Notes under the pieces: model-generated
Told to the model about the DNA's origin: nothing
The model's database searches: none
Seen by the model: only the letters and a program-made list of their open reading frames with translations
Shown: positions 335-24,425 of the stretch, piece after piece
How positions within the stretch are numbered: position 1 is the stretch's first letter
Layout: each line of letters opens with the position of its first letter
Translations under genes and position numbers: made by a program
Source of the DNA: a virus
Length of the DNA stretch: 24,425 nt
Reading direction: 5' to 3' (one strand)
Virus record (IMG/VR): IMGVR_UViG_3300023439_000005
Span: 1-24,425 of that record

Positions 335-1324
335 TTAATAAATTTTCAACACGAAATTATAGCCGGCATTTTTCACAGATTGAAATTTAGATTTATTCAT
401 TTCGACGTCGCATTTTATTGTCCATTTAGATTTAACTTCAAAAATTGTGGATGTGCTTGGTATGAACACGTCTGGGAAATAGCGATGTTTTTTATCATTT
501 AATGTATACCAAAATTCAGGCATATCTGAGCGGTTTGTTTTAATTTCGGATTCTGGATAAATTTTTAATAATTCGTCCAACAAAAAATTTTCATATCCTT
601 GAATTTTTATAATTTTGCCTGATGGTAAAACATATGATTTCCATCGATAACCGTTTGTAGATAATGGAGATTGTGAAAAATTGGGTACACCATATTTTTT
701 CAAACATGTTTCACGCGATTTTTGCTTAATTTCTTCTTTTTGGACTATGTATTCAACACCGTATTTTTGAAGATTTTTAACTTTGTTCATTTCTACGGAC
801 ATTTTACCGTGGCATACATACGAACAAGTTTTGTTATATTCATTCGTGAATTCATTAAATACCAATTTGTTACCGCATGAGCATTGTGCGGTATCAATAT
901 TATTTAACAATCTGTAAATAGTTTCTTTGTCACTTTCATTGGGTGTATTTTTTGCATTGTCGATAAATTGTCTTAAATTGTGATATTTTAGAAATTCATC
1001 ATATTTTACACCGTGCGGCCTATTTTTAAGGATGACGACGGGATCATTGGATTTTATTCCCATACGGCATTTATTCGAACAAAATTGCTGATATTTATTT
1101 TTATTAATGCTAAATTTGGTCCGGTTGTGACATTTAGTATTTAGGCATTCCGGGATTTCCTGAATATTATTAGATAAGCGGTATTTGATTTCTTGTACAG
1201 ATTCTCTCTGGTATAATTTAACATTGTCAATTTCGTGTTGGAGATTATGGGTTCGGATGAAATGCGCCCAAATTTTTTTTGGTTTTTTTGTTTTTAAAAT
1301 GTTGAGTAATTCATGTTTAGTCAT
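335..1324 (-). CDS. Putative free-standing homing endonuclease, PD-(D/E)XK-like with two zinc-knuckle modules
   Basis: This 329-residue protein carries two Cys-rich modules, C60-x4-C65-x16-C82-x3-C86 and C148-x-C150-x16-C167-x3-C171. Each is preceded by a similar helix ending YRL(S/L)NNI, so the N-terminal half is an internal duplication. Next come KYGV-type motifs (187-214) of the kind seen in phage homing-endonuclease DNA-binding regions. The C-terminus fits a PD-(D/E)XK/Vsr-like nuclease: a candidate E245, then YFPD with D285, then FEVK with E296 and K298. It would nick or cut DNA to spread its own gene. It lies downstream of the capsid gene and its terminator on the same strand, and no good Shine-Dalgarno is seen before the ATG. 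The last codon abuts the repeat array. The nuclease call is inferred from motifs; the exact family is uncertain. Confidence 0.66.
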   Translation of the reverse strand: MTKHELLNILKTKKPKKIWAHFIRTHNLQHEIDNVKLYQRESVQEIKYRLSNNIQEIPECLNTKCHNRTKFSINKNKYQQFCSNKCRMGIKSNDPVVILKNRPHGVKYDEFLKYHNLRQFIDNAKNTPNESDKETIYRLLNNIDTAQCSCGNKLVFNEFTNEYNKTCSYVCHGKMSVEMNKVKNLQKYGVEYIVQKEEIKQKSRETCLKKYGVPNFSQSPLSTNGYRWKSYVLPSGKIIKIQGYENFLLDELLKIYPESEIKTNRSDMPEFWYTLNDKKHRYFPDVFIPSTSTIFEVKSKWTIKCDVEMNKSKFQSVKNAGYNFVLKIY

Positions 1325-4515: not shown

Positions 4516-5064
4516 TTATTTATATTTTTTAGCATTTGCATACATTTTATTTGCTGATACGCCACCGGTAAAAGTTTCAGTTTTTAATTTGGCAACTTCG
4601 AGCAACCGTTCTGGTGGTATAACTACACCCAATGACCCTATTCTACTATTAATGTATAAACGAATAACAGGGGCATAACCATATCTTTTTAATAATGGTT
4701 TTAGTTGCCGATAATCAAATTCAAGACGTTTATTATTTTTAATATTTTGCGCATTCATTTTGATAATAACTTTAACTAAATTTATACGCATATTCATGGG
4801 TAACCAATGAAAATTTAAAACTAATGTATGATGGCTATTTCTTCGGAGTACCAATGCCAAAGGTGTTTTATCAAACACTCTGGTTTTATCCTTGGCATTG
4901 TATCGTGTAAAAATTAGATTACCGGGTTTAAAATCAGCAGACGTTATCCTTTTTCGCTCGCGTATTAATAAATCCCGCGCAGCTTTTTTGGATTGTGGAA
5001 TACTTAACTCTTTTATTTTTGTTAAAATATTTCTGCCGAATTTGGATATTTTTGAAATACTCAT
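4516..5064 (-). CDS. Conserved phage protein of unknown function between tube and head genes
   Basis: This 182-residue basic protein of unknown role has a Lys/Arg-rich N-terminus (1-45). A central block contains PGNLIFTRYNAKD (about 47-59), a TPLALVL strand (about 67-73) and LVLNFHWLPMNMR (about 81-93). I recall similar PG-(L)-xxF-Y-AK ... PL-x-LVL ... LNxHWLP patterns in unannotated proteins of other myoviruses, but cannot assign a function. The start overlaps the TGA of the GIY-YIG gene (ATGA), and no clear Shine-Dalgarno precedes it. An upstream signal may therefore have been replaced by the endonuclease insertion, or translation may be coupled. The T4 slot between gp19 and gp21 belongs to portal gp20, but this protein is far too short to be a portal. 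Confidence 0.72.
   Translation of the reverse strand: MSISKISKFGRNILTKIKELSIPQSKKAARDLLIRERKRITSADFKPGNLIFTRYNAKDKTRVFDKTPLALVLRRNSHHTLVLNFHWLPMNMRINLVKVIIKMNAQNIKNNKRLEFDYRQLKPLLKRYGYAPVIRLYINSRIGSLGVVIPPERLLEVAKLKTETFTGGVSANKMYANAKKYK
4517..4524 (-). promoter_or_regulatory. T4-type late promoter for the small core-like gene and gene 21
   Basis: TATAAATA on the minus strand, lying inside the last codons of the upstream 182-residue gene. It is followed after 19 nt by the ATG at 4498 with a GAGG site between. Exact consensus and correct spacing. Confidence 0.8.
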
Positions 5065-5888
5065 AATTTTTTAAAGTTTATTCCATTTATAATTTCTTCA
5101 GAATGAAACATCGCTTCTTCTATAGTCTTTGGATATATAATATCAAATCCAAGTTCTTTCCTAGTTTTACCCAAGTCGCATTCTTTTAAAAAATTATTAT
5201 TACGGATTGATTGAATAACTATTTTACGTGACGCATTTTTACACCAATGTCGCACATTTGTATGTGACATTGTATGTTTTTCTGTTATTTTTACACTTGG
5301 TGGAAGTGATATATATCGTTTTAGTGGTGTTATAAAAATTCCAAGCAATGCGCGGTCAGGACTATTTAAATTTATCAATCGGCTAATACTTTTTTTAATA
5401 TTTATTTCGGGGTGATTTTTCGCATATTCTATTGCTATTTTGCGTTTTTTTAATTTATTTTGTGGATCGCTAAAATATTTTTTAAGTGAATGTGAGATAG
5501 ATTTGCCGCGTTCTGGATGGTTTTTATTGTATTCTAACGCGCGCTTGGACATATTTAATTTATCTAAGTCTGTCAAACATCCGCAAAAATCAAACCCAGT
5601 GCTCGTTTGATTGGCTTTATTGTAAAACGCTTTATTTGATTTAACATTCAATTTTTTGTGCAATTTTATTTCAAAATTTATTGCATGATGTCTATGCTTA
5701 AATATTTTAATTATTTTATATTTGTATTTCGTGTTATTTGCTTTTTGATCGGCAATGAAGTCTTTATTCGAGCTAGAACTAAAATATTTAATGCCCAAAT
5801 CATTTACTGGCGCGCATTTAGAACTTCTGGCACCATAATAATGTTTGTTATCTGTAATGTTTGTTATCCTATATACGTAATGATTCAT
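5061..5888 (-). CDS. GIY-YIG homing endonuclease (free-standing)
   Basis: This 275-residue protein opens with a GIY-YIG nuclease domain. The GIY element appears as YVY (4-6) and the YIG element as YYG (17-19), with the catalytic Arg at R21 and the conserved Glu at E73 in NFEIKLHKKL. The middle (about 115-175) has repeated basic helices such as ALEYNKNHPERGKSIS and AIEYAKNHPEINIKKSIS, resembling NUMOD3-type DNA-binding repeats. The C-terminus (about 190-235) resembles a further DNA-binding module. It lies between a tube gene and the prohead block, where T4-like phages normally have the portal gene. The ATG follows the U-tract of a terminator directly and has no Shine-Dalgarno. A degenerate late box (TATAAATG at 5917-5924) precedes the hairpin. 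The stop overlaps the next start (ATGA). Confidence 0.86.
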   Translation of the reverse strand: MNHYVYRITNITDNKHYYGARSSKCAPVNDLGIKYFSSSSNKDFIADQKANNTKYKYKIIKIFKHRHHAINFEIKLHKKLNVKSNKAFYNKANQTSTGFDFCGCLTDLDKLNMSKRALEYNKNHPERGKSISHSLKKYFSDPQNKLKKRKIAIEYAKNHPEINIKKSISRLINLNSPDRALLGIFITPLKRYISLPPSVKITEKHTMSHTNVRHWCKNASRKIVIQSIRNNNFLKECDLGKTRKELGFDIIYPKTIEEAMFHSEEIINGINFKKL

Positions 5889-9373: not shown

Positions 9374-10054
9374 TTGCAAGTTAAATATGCGTATTCTGGC
9401 AAATCTTTTTTATTGACACCATATAAAACACACCAAGAAAAGGATTTGTTATTATTTGATGCTGTTGGGGGGGATGTCGATCGCGCATTAGAAGTATGCG
9501 GAATGGATGTAAATGACTACGATTTATCCATGGACGAAAAAATAGCGATGTTATTAAAGTTTAGGGAAATATCCGTTGGCGCGGATGTAAATGTTGAATT
9601 TAAATGTTCATTTTGTAATGCAACTAATCAAAATGAAATCAATATTGAAAATATTGTTATGGGTGCCACCAAAACCGCTGATACTCGTATAAAAGATTGT
9701 TTTAAAGAAATAACGGATGAAAATGTTTCAGATTTTATAGGAATTGAAACATCTGATATGGATTTAGATGAATATGAAGATTTGATCACCCATATACGTG
9801 AATCTGTAACAAAATTTAATTTTTCAAGAAAAAGTAGTTGCCAAAAATGTTCAAAAGATAATTATATCGACGTCAAAAGTTTTAAATTTGTCATCAGTAT
9901 AATGAGTGAAGATTCGTTGATGAGTTTATATCAAACATATAATGATCTGATTTTTCATGGTAATTATTCAAAACAGGATATAGATACAATGTATCCCTTC
10001 GAGCGTGTAATTTTTGTAAATCTTTTAAATAAATCACAAGAAGATAGTACATGA
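9374..10054 (+). CDS. Baseplate hub assembly protein, T4 gp26/gp51 family (second copy), TTG start
   Basis: This 226-residue protein starts at TTG 9374, placed 7 nt behind GGGAG. An ATG at 9323 in the same frame lies deep inside the upstream gene and has no ribosome site, so I reject it. The N-terminus YSGKSFLLTPYKTHQEKDLL is typical of the family. Cys pairs FKCSFCNA and SSCQKCSKD again suggest a zinc-bound fold, and the C-terminal MYPFERVIFVNLL segment is family-like. It is a paralogue of the preceding gene, matching the T4 use of two related proteins, gp26 and gp51. Which is which cannot be told. The stop overlaps the next start (ATGA). Confidence 0.75.
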   Translation: MQVKYAYSGKSFLLTPYKTHQEKDLLLFDAVGGDVDRALEVCGMDVNDYDLSMDEKIAMLLKFREISVGADVNVEFKCSFCNATNQNEINIENIVMGATKTADTRIKDCFKEITDENVSDFIGIETSDMDLDEYEDLITHIRESVTKFNFSRKSSCQKCSKDNYIDVKSFKFVISIMSEDSLMSLYQTYNDLIFHGNYSKQDIDTMYPFERVIFVNLLNKSQEDST

Positions 10055-12306
10055 GTAATTTTGATGATATGACTAACGATATGCATAGCCCGGATGAGGC
10101 TATACCAAAAAAGAATGAAAAATTCAATACACGCTTGAACCCGGATATAGCCACTCCGGAACAAATCGCTGACACTGATCAAAAACTCATTAATTACATG
10201 AAAAAGAAAGGTGAAGATGTGGCGGCGGACCGGATAGCCGCACTTTCTGAAAAAACAGGGGACCCGCGACAGCCTAAGCAGATCGACGCAAATTCTTTTA
10301 AATTATTAACGGTAAATAAAAAAATTCTTGCAGTATTACGCAAAATTCAACGTGATAGTATTGATGAGCAGGATACTACGATACATGGTGACAATTCTAA
10401 AAAAACCATAACTCGAATTAAAAAAACTTCTGAAAAATCCAGCAAGTCCGCGGAAACTAATGGCTTTGGATTCTTAGATATTGCCGGTGGTGCGTTAAGT
10501 GGGATTATGCAAGCACTTGGGGCGGCATTCGGGCTTAAAAAAATAAAAAATTTGGCCCGCGACATTAAAAAGACGTCAAATTCAACCAAAATTGAAAAAC
10601 ATTCTGAAAAAGATTCAAGAAAATCAGAAAAAGATTTAGAAAAAGATTCAAGAAAATCAGAAAAAGATTTAGAAAAAGATTCAAGAAAATCAGAAAAACA
10701 TTCTGAAAAAGATTCAAGAAAAATTGAAAAACATTCTGAAAAAGATTCAAGAAAATCAGAAAAAGATTTAGAAAAAGATTCAAGAAAAATTGAAAAACAT
10801 TCTGAAAAAGATTCAAGAAAAATTGAAAAACATTCTGAAAAAGATTCAAGAAAAATTGAAAAACATTCTGAAAAAGATTCAAGAAAAATTGAAAAGGGGA
10901 CAAGAAAATCTGAAAAACCAGTTGTCAAGAAAACCTCGAAACTCTTAAAACGGGGTATGAAAAGTGCCTTGCGATTCGCCAAATTCTTAGGCCCCCTGGG
11001 GGTGGTGATTGGTGGCGCGATGGCTGTTTCCGATGGCATTGATGGATATGAACACGCCGCTGATTCACTGGGAATAGATAAAGATAAACTTACAACAGGG
11101 AATAAAGTATCTGCTGCAGCTGGTTCGATTATTTCTGGTATAACTTTTGGCGCTATAGATAATGGTGATGCTGCTAAAGGTATTAATAACCTATTTAGTA
11201 ATCCAACAATCGAAAAATATTCAAAAGATAAAATAATTAGTCATCATACGTTAGGCGATTCGGAAATCCTTGATTGGAAAAAGCTTAGCACATTACCACC
11301 AGATGAAATCCAAAAAATTATTGATATTGACGATTGGTCTGCAGATGATACAACGAAATTACACTTACTTAAGCAATCTGCCGTTGCGGCGCCTCAAGCG
11401 ATTAAAGATATAGAACGTTTTGATTTGCAAAAAACGGCAAATGCTGATTTACCAAAAATAAATTATACCATGCGGAAACCCATATATGATCAGAGTGGTT
11501 CAACGGGTTCAATGACGTCACACCCGAATAATTCGACGAACCCGGATGATTATAAAACTAATGAATTATTTAAATTTTATAAAGTAAAAGAATCGGATTT
11601 TGAAAAATTGCAACCTAACATGCTTAGCAATGTTAAAGCAATGGGTGCTGAATATTTGGACACTTATGGTGAAAAGATTCAAATTAACTCGGCATTCCGG
11701 TCAGTGAAAGAACAGGCAGCGCTTAAAGAAAAGTACGGCACCCGCGCGGCCCAGCCGGGAATGTCAATGCATAATTATGGCCTTGCTGTTGATATGAATA
11801 CTAAAAATGCGCAAAAAGCAATTGATGCAGGCTTGTTTGATAAATACGGATTTACACGACCGGTGCCTGGTGAAACGTGGCACGTTGAACCAAAAAATAT
11901 TGACAGAGTTAAAATTAGAACGCAAGGCACAAAAGTAATTGCCAAAAATGATGTTTCAGCCCATTCTGTACAACGCCCACCTAGTGCGGAATTTGCCGAA
12001 TCCGAGAAATCCCCAAAAGATGTGGTTGCAGCCAAAAAAACATCGAGCATTAAACCGATTAACGCGAAAGATGTAACATTAGAAACCCAACAAATTGATA
12101 AAATGGTTAAGAGCGTTGTTGTTGATAAAACTTTAAAAGAACACGCAGTATTTAAAAAATCAAAAGATATTAATAAGCCGCGCGCTGCTATAACCCCAGT
12201 TCAAAACATGGCATCAGATAAAATTAAAACCAATCCACAAGTGATAATTTCACCATATGATATAAATACACAAACAAGTATTTTAGATGTATTTTCGAGT
12301 ACTTAA
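10051..12306 (+). CDS. Tape-measure/hub-like tail protein with M15-type peptidoglycan peptidase domain
   Basis: The protein has 751 residues. Its place, after the gp26/gp51-like genes and before the gp48/gp54-like gene, is that of T4 gp29, the tail-length tape measure. A polar helical N-terminus (1-180) is followed by nine 11-residue repeats of type EK(H/D)(S/L)EKDSRK(I/S) (182-280). Then come a Gly-rich hydrophobic segment around 303-327 that could insert in a membrane, and a linker. Residues about 510-620 form a metallopeptidase M15 (VanY/endolysin-like) domain: INSAFRS at 545-551, SMHNYGLAVDM with zinc ligands H574 and D581, and GETWHVE with E608 and H611. All expected catalytic residues are present. 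The C-terminal 130 residues look unstructured. It may set tail length and cut peptidoglycan cross-links on entry. Tape-measure identity is inferred; the peptidase domain is clear. Confidence 0.82.
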   Translation: MSNFDDMTNDMHSPDEAIPKKNEKFNTRLNPDIATPEQIADTDQKLINYMKKKGEDVAADRIAALSEKTGDPRQPKQIDANSFKLLTVNKKILAVLRKIQRDSIDEQDTTIHGDNSKKTITRIKKTSEKSSKSAETNGFGFLDIAGGALSGIMQALGAAFGLKKIKNLARDIKKTSNSTKIEKHSEKDSRKSEKDLEKDSRKSEKDLEKDSRKSEKHSEKDSRKIEKHSEKDSRKSEKDLEKDSRKIEKHSEKDSRKIEKHSEKDSRKIEKHSEKDSRKIEKGTRKSEKPVVKKTSKLLKRGMKSALRFAKFLGPLGVVIGGAMAVSDGIDGYEHAADSLGIDKDKLTTGNKVSAAAGSIISGITFGAIDNGDAAKGINNLFSNPTIEKYSKDKIISHHTLGDSEILDWKKLSTLPPDEIQKIIDIDDWSADDTTKLHLLKQSAVAAPQAIKDIERFDLQKTANADLPKINYTMRKPIYDQSGSTGSMTSHPNNSTNPDDYKTNELFKFYKVKESDFEKLQPNMLSNVKAMGAEYLDTYGEKIQINSAFRSVKEQAALKEKYGTRAAQPGMSMHNYGLAVDMNTKNAQKAIDAGLFDKYGFTRPVPGETWHVEPKNIDRVKIRTQGTKVIAKNDVSAHSVQRPPSAEFAESEKSPKDVVAAKKTSSIKPINAKDVTLETQQIDKMVKSVVVDKTLKEHAVFKKSKDINKPRAAITPVQNMASDKIKTNPQVIISPYDINTQTSILDVFSST
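10594..10890 (+). repeat. Nine tandem 33-bp repeats coding a hendecad helix
   Basis: Nine exact-length 33-bp units inside the tape-measure-like gene encode EK(H/D)(S/L)EKDSRK(I/S). Two main sub-types occur, HS and DL at positions 3-4, and the last position switches between Ser and Ile. A tenth unit is truncated (EKGTRKSEK). The near identity at the DNA level indicates recent expansion by slippage or unequal recombination. Confidence 0.95.
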
Positions 12307-21592: not shown

Positions 21593-22681
21593 GTGAAATA
21601 TATTTTGAATACTAAAAACTTGGTCCCAAAAAAAACATTAGAGCGAATTTTCTTTGGTGAGTTTTCGGGGTTCCAGCGTTATGATAACCCCATGTATAAA
21701 TTTGCAGTTTCCATGGAAGAAAAACAACGGAACGCGTTTTGGAATCCCAATGAGATTTCAATGCAAACAGACTCACAAAAGTTTTTTGATATGCCTGAAC
21801 CCATGCAGTCCGTAATGATCCGCATTTGGCTATTTCAAACACTTATGGACTCCGGTCAAAATTCGGGCATTGAGGGCATTCTCGCCGAAATGTGTACTAA
21901 CCCAGAATTTCAAGCCATGTTTAAGACATGGGGATATTTTGAATTAATACATTCATTGAGTTATTCACACATTCTCAGGGGTATTTTTTCCAGCAGTTCA
22001 GAAATTTTTGATAAAATTAAAGATTATCCAGAAATTCAACAACGGATAGATAAAGAAATTGAGTTGTACTCCCGTGTGAAAAATATATCCAACATTGGAA
22101 ATATTGAAGATAAAAAGAAATTAGTACTGGAATTGTTGGTTAATATATTTGCGCTAGAAGGAATTAAATTTTATGTATCATTTTTAATTACATATGTTAT
22201 CAATGATTCATTCAAAAATTCCATTCAAGGTGCAACAAGAATAATCAAATTAATCAATTTCGATGAAGATTTACATACATCTATGTGTAATGGCTTATTA
22301 AATATTTTGAAAAAAGAAAAAACTGAGGGGTTTTCTGAATTAATGAATTCTGAGTGGTATTCTGATATGATTCAAACCACTATGAAACAAGTCCATGAAG
22401 ACGAAATTATATTTGCTAAATACTTACTAAATACCGGCGAAATACCATCATTAACAATCCCAGTGATTGATCAATTTTTGAAATATTATGTGGATTTACG
22501 AACCGCGCAGCTCGGACAACCCAAGATTTATAATCAGGAAAAAACCGACATTGTACGATTTTTCGAACACTATAAAGATATGAATTTGGATAATTCAGCA
22601 CTGCAAGAATCAGATGCCGCGGTTTATTCAATTGCCATTATGAATTCTGATATTCCGGACGGCCCATTAAATATCGAGTAA
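21593..22681 (+). CDS. nrdB: Ribonucleotide reductase class Ia small (beta) subunit
   Basis: This 362-residue protein starts at GTG 21593 behind AGGGGG. It makes the diferric-tyrosyl radical that NrdA uses to reduce ribonucleotides for phage DNA synthesis. Iron ligands line up with the E. coli set: D86 (TLMDS), E117 and H120 (YFELIHS), E189 (ALEGIKFYVSF), E225 and H228 (FDEDLH). The radical tyrosine is Y124 in SLSYSHILR, so the enzyme looks active and not a Mn or Tyr-less variant. The C-terminus is acidic and probably docks in NrdA. It is the first non-virion gene of the strand. In T4, nrdA precedes nrdB; here the order is reversed. Confidence 0.96.
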   Translation: MKYILNTKNLVPKKTLERIFFGEFSGFQRYDNPMYKFAVSMEEKQRNAFWNPNEISMQTDSQKFFDMPEPMQSVMIRIWLFQTLMDSGQNSGIEGILAEMCTNPEFQAMFKTWGYFELIHSLSYSHILRGIFSSSSEIFDKIKDYPEIQQRIDKEIELYSRVKNISNIGNIEDKKKLVLELLVNIFALEGIKFYVSFLITYVINDSFKNSIQGATRIIKLINFDEDLHTSMCNGLLNILKKEKTEGFSELMNSEWYSDMIQTTMKQVHEDEIIFAKYLLNTGEIPSLTIPVIDQFLKYYVDLRTAQLGQPKIYNQEKTDIVRFFEHYKDMNLDNSALQESDAAVYSIAIMNSDIPDGPLNIE

Positions 22682-22699: not shown

Positions 22700-22870
22700 A
22701 TGATAAGAATTATAGCAACCGCGAGTGAAAAACAACAACTCATCGAAGAATCACGTTTTTTACATGATGAGTGCGATTTTGATAGTGATAAAATTAATAG
22801 TTTAATGCATTTACATGCTTTACCAAGTGACGCATGGATAATTATAAAGGATTCTTATGACGAAAGCTAA
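22700..22870 (+). CDS. Small ORF between nrdB and nrdA
   Basis: This 56-residue protein starts at the ATG at 22700, with GGGA about 9 nt upstream. A TTG at 22685 would add five residues but has no ribosome site. The sequence is acidic and mostly helical: a SEKQQLIEESRFLHDECDFDSDKI helix, then LHALPSDAWIIIKDSYD. It is squeezed between the two nrd genes and overlaps nrdA by 14 nt, so it should be co-expressed with them. No family was recognised. A glutaredoxin is excluded, because there is a single Cys and no CxxC motif. Confidence 0.6.
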   Translation: MIRIIATASEKQQLIEESRFLHDECDFDSDKINSLMHLHALPSDAWIIIKDSYDES

Positions 22871-24425
22871 ACGTTACAATAAATTATCTTTAAATGACTT
22901 GGGTTCCGCGGTCAAACATAAAGAAAAAATTTCAATTAGCAACCAAGATAATATAAACGCCGCCAAAATTGTAGTTATTAAACGCGATGGTCGGAAAGAA
23001 CCATTCCAGCCTATTAAAATGCGTAAAGTTTGCCATTGGGCAACCGGACAAAAATCTTGGATGACTGATGAATTAATTAAAGACACCGAAATTAAACTAC
23101 ATAAAGAAATACATATTAAAAATATGTTCCAACAGCTTATTGTGACAGCTGTTAATAAAATTTCCATGTTAAACCCTGATTGGGAAGACGTCGCCGCAAA
23201 ATTGCAACTAATGAGCTATTATAAAGAAACACATAATATTAGTTTAATGGATAATTATTGGAGCATGTCCGATGTTATTGAGAAGGGACTAGAATATAAA
23301 ATTTACGATAAATTATCGGTGCAACAATATACAGAAGATGAATTGAAAAAAATTGATTCATTCATTGTGCCTGAACGCGATATGTTGTTCAATTATAAAG
23401 GCTTGGTTACATTTTATTCCAAATATTGCTTAAATTATACCAAAACAAAAAAACTCGAACTACCGCAGCATGCATATATGCGTGTAGCAATGGCATTAAT
23501 GATAAATGAAAATAACCGCGTGGAACGGGTTAAAGACGTATATGACGCCATAAGTCAACACCATTATACCAAAGCAACCCCGATTATGCTAAACGCATTA
23601 ACACCTGGACAACAATTATCTAGCTGTGTTCTCAATACAGTAAGCGACGATTCTCATAATATTCTAGATACAGGTAAGAATCTCGGCATTTACAGCAAAT
23701 ATAAAGGGGGAACCGCGCTTGATATAAGCGCACTGCGGGCAAAGGGCTCATATATTGAAGGAACACAGGGACGTTCATCTGGTCCCGTGCCATTTATGAA
23801 ATTTTATGAATCAATCATGCGTGCATGGAATCAAGGCGGCGCCCGACCCGGTGCATGCTGCGTATATTTTTCATGGTGGCATTATGATGTTTTTGATTTA
23901 TTGTGTTTGAAGTCAAATGGCGGTACAGATGAAAACCGGGCGCGAGGCCTACAATATGGCTTTAAAATGAATCAATTATTTATTGACGCCGTTTTAGATG
24001 ATAAGGAAATCGCTTTATTTGATCCCAAAGACACCCCGAATTTAATTGGGTCAACAGGCGAAAAATTTAATAATTATTATAATGAATATTTGGGCAAACC
24101 ATCTATTAAACGTACTATTATTAAAGCCCGAGAATTATTGACTGCATTATTCAAAAATAGGTCCGAAACCGGGAATATTTATTTGTTCCATGAAGAAAAT
24201 GTTAATAACGCCACATTGTTGAAGCGTTATATCGGTTCTTCAAATTTGTGTTTATCTGGTGAAACACTTATTCAAACCGACAAGGGCCAAAAAAAATTAA
24301 AACATATTGAACCCGGTGATTTTGTCAAATCTTATAATATTGAAACAAATAAAACGGAATTTAAAAAAGTTACCGATTCTGCCCAGACAAATCCAGCAGC
24401 CAATGTCATGAAAATAACCGACGAA
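22857..24425 (+). CDS. nrdA: Ribonucleotide reductase class Ia large (alpha) subunit, interrupted by an intein, 3' end outside window
   Basis: The frame is open for 523 codons to the window end. The start is ATG 22857 behind AAAGGA, overlapping the small ORF. Residues about 37-125 are an ATP-cone allosteric domain (KIVVIKRDGRKEPFQPIKMRKV). The catalytic barrel follows: TPIMLNA and QQLSSCVL with the first redox cysteine C257, AKGSYIEGTQGRSSG, NQGGARPGACCVYFSWWHYDV and ENRARGLQYGFKMN. The conserved motif S-N-L-C-(L/M)-E, which holds the thiyl-radical cysteine (E. coli C439), appears as SSNLC at 461-465 and is then followed by LSGETLIQT instead of the usual EIALPT. That is an intein junction, described separately. 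The second redox cysteine and the C-terminal CxxC tail lie beyond the window. Confidence 0.96.
   Translation, partial: MTKAKRYNKLSLNDLGSAVKHKEKISISNQDNINAAKIVVIKRDGRKEPFQPIKMRKVCHWATGQKSWMTDELIKDTEIKLHKEIHIKNMFQQLIVTAVNKISMLNPDWEDVAAKLQLMSYYKETHNISLMDNYWSMSDVIEKGLEYKIYDKLSVQQYTEDELKKIDSFIVPERDMLFNYKGLVTFYSKYCLNYTKTKKLELPQHAYMRVAMALMINENNRVERVKDVYDAISQHHYTKATPIMLNALTPGQQLSSCVLNTVSDDSHNILDTGKNLGIYSKYKGGTALDISALRAKGSYIEGTQGRSSGPVPFMKFYESIMRAWNQGGARPGACCVYFSWWHYDVFDLLCLKSNGGTDENRARGLQYGFKMNQLFIDAVLDDKEIALFDPKDTPNLIGSTGEKFNNYYNEYLGKPSIKRTIIKARELLTALFKNRSETGNIYLFHEENVNNATLLKRYIGSSNLCLSGETLIQTDKGQKKLKHIEPGDFVKSYNIETNKTEFKKVTDSAQTNPAANVMKITDE
24249..24425 (+). other. N-terminal part of an intein inserted at the catalytic cysteine of NrdA
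   Basis: From codon TGT at 24249 (C465) the protein leaves the NrdA pattern and follows intein block A: CLSGETLIQT, then GQKKLKHIEPGDFVKSYN. This is the Hint-domain form Cys1-LxGxTxI-x-T ... G ... I-x-x-GD-x-V-x-S. Cys1 would be the splicing nucleophile. After splicing the host cysteine (+1) would be the thiyl-radical residue itself. Only 59 residues are visible. Block B (TxxH), any homing endonuclease domain and the C-terminal His-Asn block lie outside the window, so size, endonuclease type and activity are unknown. Confidence 0.9.

What the first reader, a model, noticed from the sequence alone, without database searches (positions are those of the whole stretch)
24240..24425. Intein placed exactly at the thiyl-radical cysteine of phage NrdA
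The class Ia motif S-N-L-C-L-E is present up to SNLC and then switches to intein block A (CLSGETLIQT ... IEPGDFV). No functional reductase can form unless the intein splices, and the +1 residue restored would be the catalytic radical cysteine. Inteins in ribonucleotide reductase genes are known, so the class is not new; the particular allele and its DOD, HNH or absent endonuclease are not visible and may be novel. Splicing could also act as a switch on nucleotide supply during infection.
Basis: partly seen in the sequence, partly recalled or inferred. Interest (0 to 1): 0.78.

Follow-up and report, generated by a model that had tools for sequence, protein, structure and literature searches.

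The report
Split intein in phage ribonucleotide reductase
A phage gene for making DNA building blocks is interrupted exactly at its key catalytic cysteine by the first part of a self-splicing protein element, and close relatives show that this element is almost certainly made as two separate pieces that must find each other and join the two halves of the enzyme; this arrangement is already known in phages.

Summary
A class Ia NrdA frame (22857-24425) runs to SSNL and, at nt 24249, switches to 59 residues of intein before the contig ends. The +1 residue that splicing would restore aligns with the thiyl-radical cysteine. Intein-free relatives read SSNL|CTEI at the same codon. The window is the whole public record, so its intein cannot be completed.

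Relatives change the mechanism. Homologous inteins at this site in the closest phages (L003, L009, L037, L124) are split. The N-intein (94-98 aa) ends at a stop. A separate ORF with its own ribosome-binding site starts the C-intein (33-36 aa), which ends VHN|C-x-E-I. Across 77 distinct I_N/I_C pairs at this site, 71 are split and 6 are contiguous mini-inteins. The break usually holds a free-standing homing endonuclease (GIY-YIG, HNH or phrog_3339), sometimes none. Carriers do not form one clade on the NrdA tree, so the intein has moved or been lost repeatedly.

Best reading: a fractured nrdA gene with a trans-splicing split intein. This is the kind reported by Dassa et al. 2009, and it is present but not named as such in Yersinia phage TG1. 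New member of a known kind; interest modest.

The parts
22857..24248 (+). N-terminal extein of class Ia ribonucleotide reductase large subunit NrdA (464 aa, ATP cone, all-alpha and start of barrel domain), ending ...RYIGSSNL
   Evidence: 70% identical to intein-free NrdA of L002 and Vibrio phage pv27
24249..24425 (+). First 59 residues of the intein (Cys1, block A CLSGETLIQT, ...KITDE), cut by the contig end; predicted N-half (I_N) of a split intein
21593..22681 (+). nrdB, class Ia small subunit, directly upstream (same order nrdB-nrdA in L002, L003, L004, L005)
22700..22870 (+). small ORF between nrdB and nrdA, overlapping the nrdA start; no function assigned

Best explanation
The window ends inside the N-half of a split intein that fractures the phage nrdA gene at the codon of the catalytic thiyl-radical cysteine. 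Beyond the contig end, I_N should run about 35-40 more residues through block B (CTPEHKIWTxNRGYV) to a stop codon. Then comes either a free-standing homing endonuclease gene or almost nothing. Then a separate ORF encodes a ~35-aa I_C (KIEYLEEExPVYDITVxDNHNFxANDILVHN) fused to the rest of NrdA, starting C-T-E-I. After translation the two precursors associate through the intein halves and splice in trans: N-S acyl shift at Cys1, transfer to Cys+1, Asn cyclisation, S-N shift. This joins SSNL to CTEI and so creates the radical cysteine in its proper context. The endonuclease, encoded between the halves, would copy the whole cassette into intein-free nrdA genes during coinfection. Shown here: the N-junction in the window, the same site intein-free in relatives, and the split architecture with separate ribosome-binding sites in close relatives. 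Inferred: that the window's own copy is split, that it splices, and that the endonuclease drives its spread.
For: Window I_N is 54-59% identical to the I_N of L003, L009 and L037. In L003 and L009, I_N stops after 96 and 94 aa, and an endonuclease ORF follows (542 aa phrog_3339; 310 aa HNH type phrog_655). I_C of 33 and 36 aa then begins after a Shine-Dalgarno-like AAGGA or AAAGGAAG and ends VHN|CTEI. L037 is split with a 4-nt start/stop overlap (ATGA) and no endonuclease. L124 has I_C on a separate ORF, directly after the tail of a reading frame that by eye resembles the end of the L003 endonuclease (compare). Among 77 distinct I_N/I_C pairs at this site, 71 are split and 6 contiguous. +1 is always Cys, followed by x-E in 75 of 77. 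Annotated phage TG1 has the same layout: NrdA-N, HNH endonuclease, NrdA-C. Intein carriers window, L003, L009 and L024 do not form a clade on the NrdA tree (p-AU 0.0004). The best solved relative of the I_N is the NrdJ-1 intein, then gp41-1.
Against: The window itself ends before any block that separates split from contiguous, so its split state is inferred. Six contiguous mini-inteins (138-161 aa) of the same family exist at this site, two of them matching the window's I_N over its 59 residues at 44% and 53% identity (L132, L153). The locus sample was gathered with patterns from split members and is biased towards them. Splicing was not tested.
Confidence: 0.87

Rival explanations
1. A contiguous, cis-splicing mini-intein (no endonuclease) or an intein with an internal endonuclease interrupts nrdA in one frame.
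For: Six of 77 distinct family members at the site are contiguous mini-inteins. Vibrio phage ICP1 (LAGLIDADG-like motif LAGYLDADG), Rheinheimera phage Barba8S and Caulobacter phage Karma carry large contiguous inteins at the same SNL|C site.
Against: All four close-lineage relatives in which the break is visible are split. The ICP1 intein is only 26% identical to the window's I_N.
Confidence: 0.11
2. A decaying or dead allele: intein remnant in a pseudogene, so no functional NrdA is made.
For: The nrdA of some Campylobacter phages with inteins is described as degenerating (PMC3653736).
Against: The 523-codon frame is intact; Cys1 and the other columns identical in the window, L003 and L009 are kept across the junction; nrdB upstream is intact.
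Confidence: 0.02

Closest known systems
Split inteins in fractured phage genes (Dassa et al. 2009, NAR 37:2560; NrdA-2 is listed as metagenome-derived in PMC7090010)
   Same: Phage NrdA, split intein, free-standing endonuclease between the halves in relatives
   Different: The paper itself is not held here; I could not compare sequences with NrdA-2 directly or confirm its insertion site. The endonucleases at the break in the nearest relatives are HNH or phrog_3339; the wider set is mostly GIY-YIG.
Yersinia phage vB_YenM_TG1 nrdA (KP202158, locus L117)
   Same: Same insertion codon (QSNL|C), N-part, HNH endonuclease, C-part with I_C ending VHN|CAEI
   Different: I_N 41% identical to the window; annotated as two NrdA genes and an endonuclease, no split intein named in the record
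IMG/VR contigs 3300026484_000248 (L003), 3300003873_000069 (L009), 3300013233_000458 (L037)
   Same: Closest homologous elements at the same codon, all split
   Different: Different occupant of the break in each: phrog_3339 endonuclease, HNH-type endonuclease, nothing
ICP1 NrdA intein (NC_015157, ORF203; PMC10448857)
   Same: Same SNL|C site
   Different: Contiguous intein of about 328 aa with a LAGLIDADG-like motif, ending in Gln; only 26% identity over the visible part

Membership tests
Class Ia ribonucleotide reductase large subunit (NrdA) | ATP cone, all-alpha and barrel domains | tested here: met
   Pfam PF03477, PF00317, PF02867 all above cut-off
Class Ia ribonucleotide reductase large subunit (NrdA) | Radical cysteine in S-N-L-C-x-E at the intein junction | tested here: met
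   Query C465 aligns at the ends with yeast R1 residue 428 and NrdE residue 388; intein-free relatives read SSNLCTEI
Intein | Cys1 and N-terminal splicing block at an in-frame junction in a conserved gene, with intein-free alleles known | tested here: met
Intein | Block B TxxH, C-terminal HN and Cys/Ser/Thr +1 | tested here: inconclusive
   Beyond the window's end; present in L003, L009 and L037 (CTPEHK, VHN|C)
Intein | Protein splicing activity | not testable with these tools
   Needs expression
Fractured-gene split intein | I_N ends at a stop and I_C is on a separate ORF fused to the C-extein | tested here: inconclusive
   Met in all four close relatives as far as visible; the window ends too early
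Fractured-gene split intein | Free-standing endonuclease gene between the halves | tested here: inconclusive
   L003, L009 and TG1 yes, L037 no; not visible in the window
LAGLIDADG intein of the ICP1 type | Close sequence similarity of the N-part | tested here: not met
   26% identity against 54-59% for the close split members

The most novel reading that the evidence does not exclude
The SNL|C site of phage NrdA is a long-lived split-intein locus in which the nuclease at the break is exchangeable (GIY-YIG, HNH, phrog_3339 or none) while the two intein halves stay. The window would carry a further combination, and the split state, which needs two proteins to meet before the radical cysteine exists, may be kept for regulation and not only for nuclease spread.
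Probability: 0.12. Interest if true: 0.55.

Novelty: new member of a known kind. Interest (0 to 1): 0.32.

Why it matters
It adds a divergent lineage of naturally split inteins (short I_N of 94-98 aa, I_C of 33-36 aa) to a class that supplies fast protein-ligation tools. It also gives a natural series, with carriers, intein-free phages, endonuclease-free splits and fused mini-inteins all at one codon, in which the birth and loss of split inteins can be ordered. For annotation, phages with two 'NrdA' genes around an endonuclease, such as TG1, should be read as one trans-spliced enzyme and not as broken or duplicated genes.

Tried and rejected
Completing the intein from the window's own assembly: the window is the whole record. 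An exact 29-base search for an overlapping contig in IMG/VR found none. Looking for an I_C elsewhere in the window: no hit. Fletchervirus Campylobacter phages first looked like intein carriers, because the match ran past the junction; they read SNLCCEI and have no intein there. The first call to Pfam for the endonucleases failed on wrong coordinates and was repeated. My first count of split versus contiguous forms missed MSNLC exteins; the corrected count is. Dassa 2009 itself is not held. A bacterial-genome scan gave only distant inteins in other or unclear proteins. Structure prediction was not run, since sequence homology already settles the fold and two separate chains could not be modelled together here.

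Full report
What is in the window. The window is a complete 24425-base virus record. It reads like a T4-type phage structural region (my reading of the ORFs) with, at its right end, nrdB (21593-22681) and nrdA (22857 onward). The nrdA frame is open to the last base. Its first 464 residues are an ordinary class Ia large subunit, about 70% identical to intein-free NrdA in Vibrio phage pv27 and in IMG/VR contig L002. After ...RYIGSSNL the codon TGT at 24249 starts 59 residues that do not belong to NrdA.

The site. Nine intein-free relatives keep the same TGT or TGC codon and go on as CTEI or CQEI, so the junction lies exactly between Leu and Cys. In the PDB comparison the last query residue (C465) falls on residue 428 of yeast R1 and residue 388 of Salmonella NrdE. 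From established knowledge those are the thiyl-radical cysteines, equivalent to C439 of E. coli. The residue after it is Thr in this lineage, not Leu.

It is an intein, and which one. The 59 residues align to the N-inteins of L003 (59% identity), L009 (56%) and L037 (54%) at the same site; for all three the score lies 21-26 standard deviations above shuffled sequences. The closest solved structure to this family of N-inteins is the NrdJ-1 intein, then gp41-1.

What the relatives show. In L003 and L009 the N-intein ends at a stop after 96 and 94 residues. A complete endonuclease ORF follows. A new ORF, preceded by a Shine-Dalgarno-like sequence, then encodes an I_C of 33 or 36 residues ending VHN, fused to CTEI and the rest of NrdA. 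In L037 the I_N stop and the I_C start overlap by four bases and there is no endonuclease. In L124 the contig begins just upstream of a separate I_C ORF; by eye, the reading frame before it ends like the L003 endonuclease (compare). L024, like the window, is cut inside I_N by the contig end. No contiguous form was found in this close lineage.

The wider family. Searches with the I_C and I_N alignments returned 80 loci each (some are the same contigs). After removing identical pairs there are 77 I_N/I_C combinations at the NrdA site: 71 split and 6 contiguous mini-inteins of 138-161 residues. The break holds a GIY-YIG-like endonuclease ORF in at least 42 cases by motif (two representatives confirmed by Pfam). 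It holds HNH-type or other ORFs in 21, and no ORF of 90 residues or more in 8. Not every one of the 77 extein pairs was checked by a family search to be class Ia NrdA; the test was the extein motif on both sides. The sample was collected with patterns from split members, so the 92% is not an unbiased frequency. Larger contiguous inteins occupy the same codon in ICP1, Barbavirus and Caulobacter phage Karma; the ICP1 one is only 26% identical.

Mobility. On a tree of the N-exteins, the four carriers in the window's lineage (window, L003, L009, L024) are scattered among intein-free phages. The tree needs 4 changes within that lineage, and holding the carriers together is rejected (p-AU 0.0004). 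This fits repeated gain by homing or repeated loss; it does not distinguish them.

Mechanism. Most likely NrdA-N-I_N and I_C-NrdA-C are translated separately, associate through the intein halves and splice in trans, which makes the active-site sequence SSNL-CTEI. Until then no chain contains a complete barrel with the radical cysteine in place. The nuclease between the halves would spread the cassette. For the window's own copy the split state is inference (about 0.87), and splicing and homing are untested anywhere in this work. The idea of a regulatory switch is open and unsupported.

Known or new. Split inteins in fractured phage genes, including NrdA, were reported by Dassa et al. 2009. That paper is not held, but it is cited as the source of NrdA-2 in PMC7090010. 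Yersinia phage TG1 carries the same layout in an annotated record. The finding is a new, divergent member of that kind.

Noticed in passing
L003:10076-11364; L011, L012, L013, L124: A second intein site in the same nrdA, at APTA|TSGK. It is split in L003, L012 and L013 and a contiguous mini-intein in L124. In L003 the N-half seems to lie on two ORFs (stop at 10353; 10628-10885) before the C-half at 10906, a possible three-piece intein or a decayed insert; single locus.
   Followed up: partly
L007:5974-7359, L008:5589-6962 (Campylobacter Fletchervirus): NrdA ends about 25 residues after SNLC without an intein, and the C-half (from about residue 22 after the cysteine) lies tens of kb away in the same genome: a gene in two pieces broken near the same point.
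   Followed up: partly
window 335-1324, - strand: DUF7487 / phrog_3339-like free-standing homing endonuclease (Pfam 1.1e-32), the same Pfam domain and PHROG family as the endonuclease inside the L003 nrdA split intein.
   Followed up: partly
window 5061-5888, - strand: Free-standing endonuclease-like ORF (phrog_314, 3.3e-17) between structural genes; by eye a similar ORF follows nrdA in L124.
   Followed up: no
window 10051-12306, + strand: 751-aa ORF with a long run of KDSRKSEKHSEKDSRKIEK-type repeats in its first half; by eye a linker in a structural protein with a peptidase-looking C-terminal part.
   Followed up: no
[quoted passage not shown] the middle one lies at the SNLC site and is 46% identical to the window's I_N.
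   Followed up: no
L126-L128:3992-5377: A close relative of this I_N (63% to L009) after a different junction (TTSQL|C), also on two ORFs: the same intein type apparently outside NrdA.
   Followed up: no
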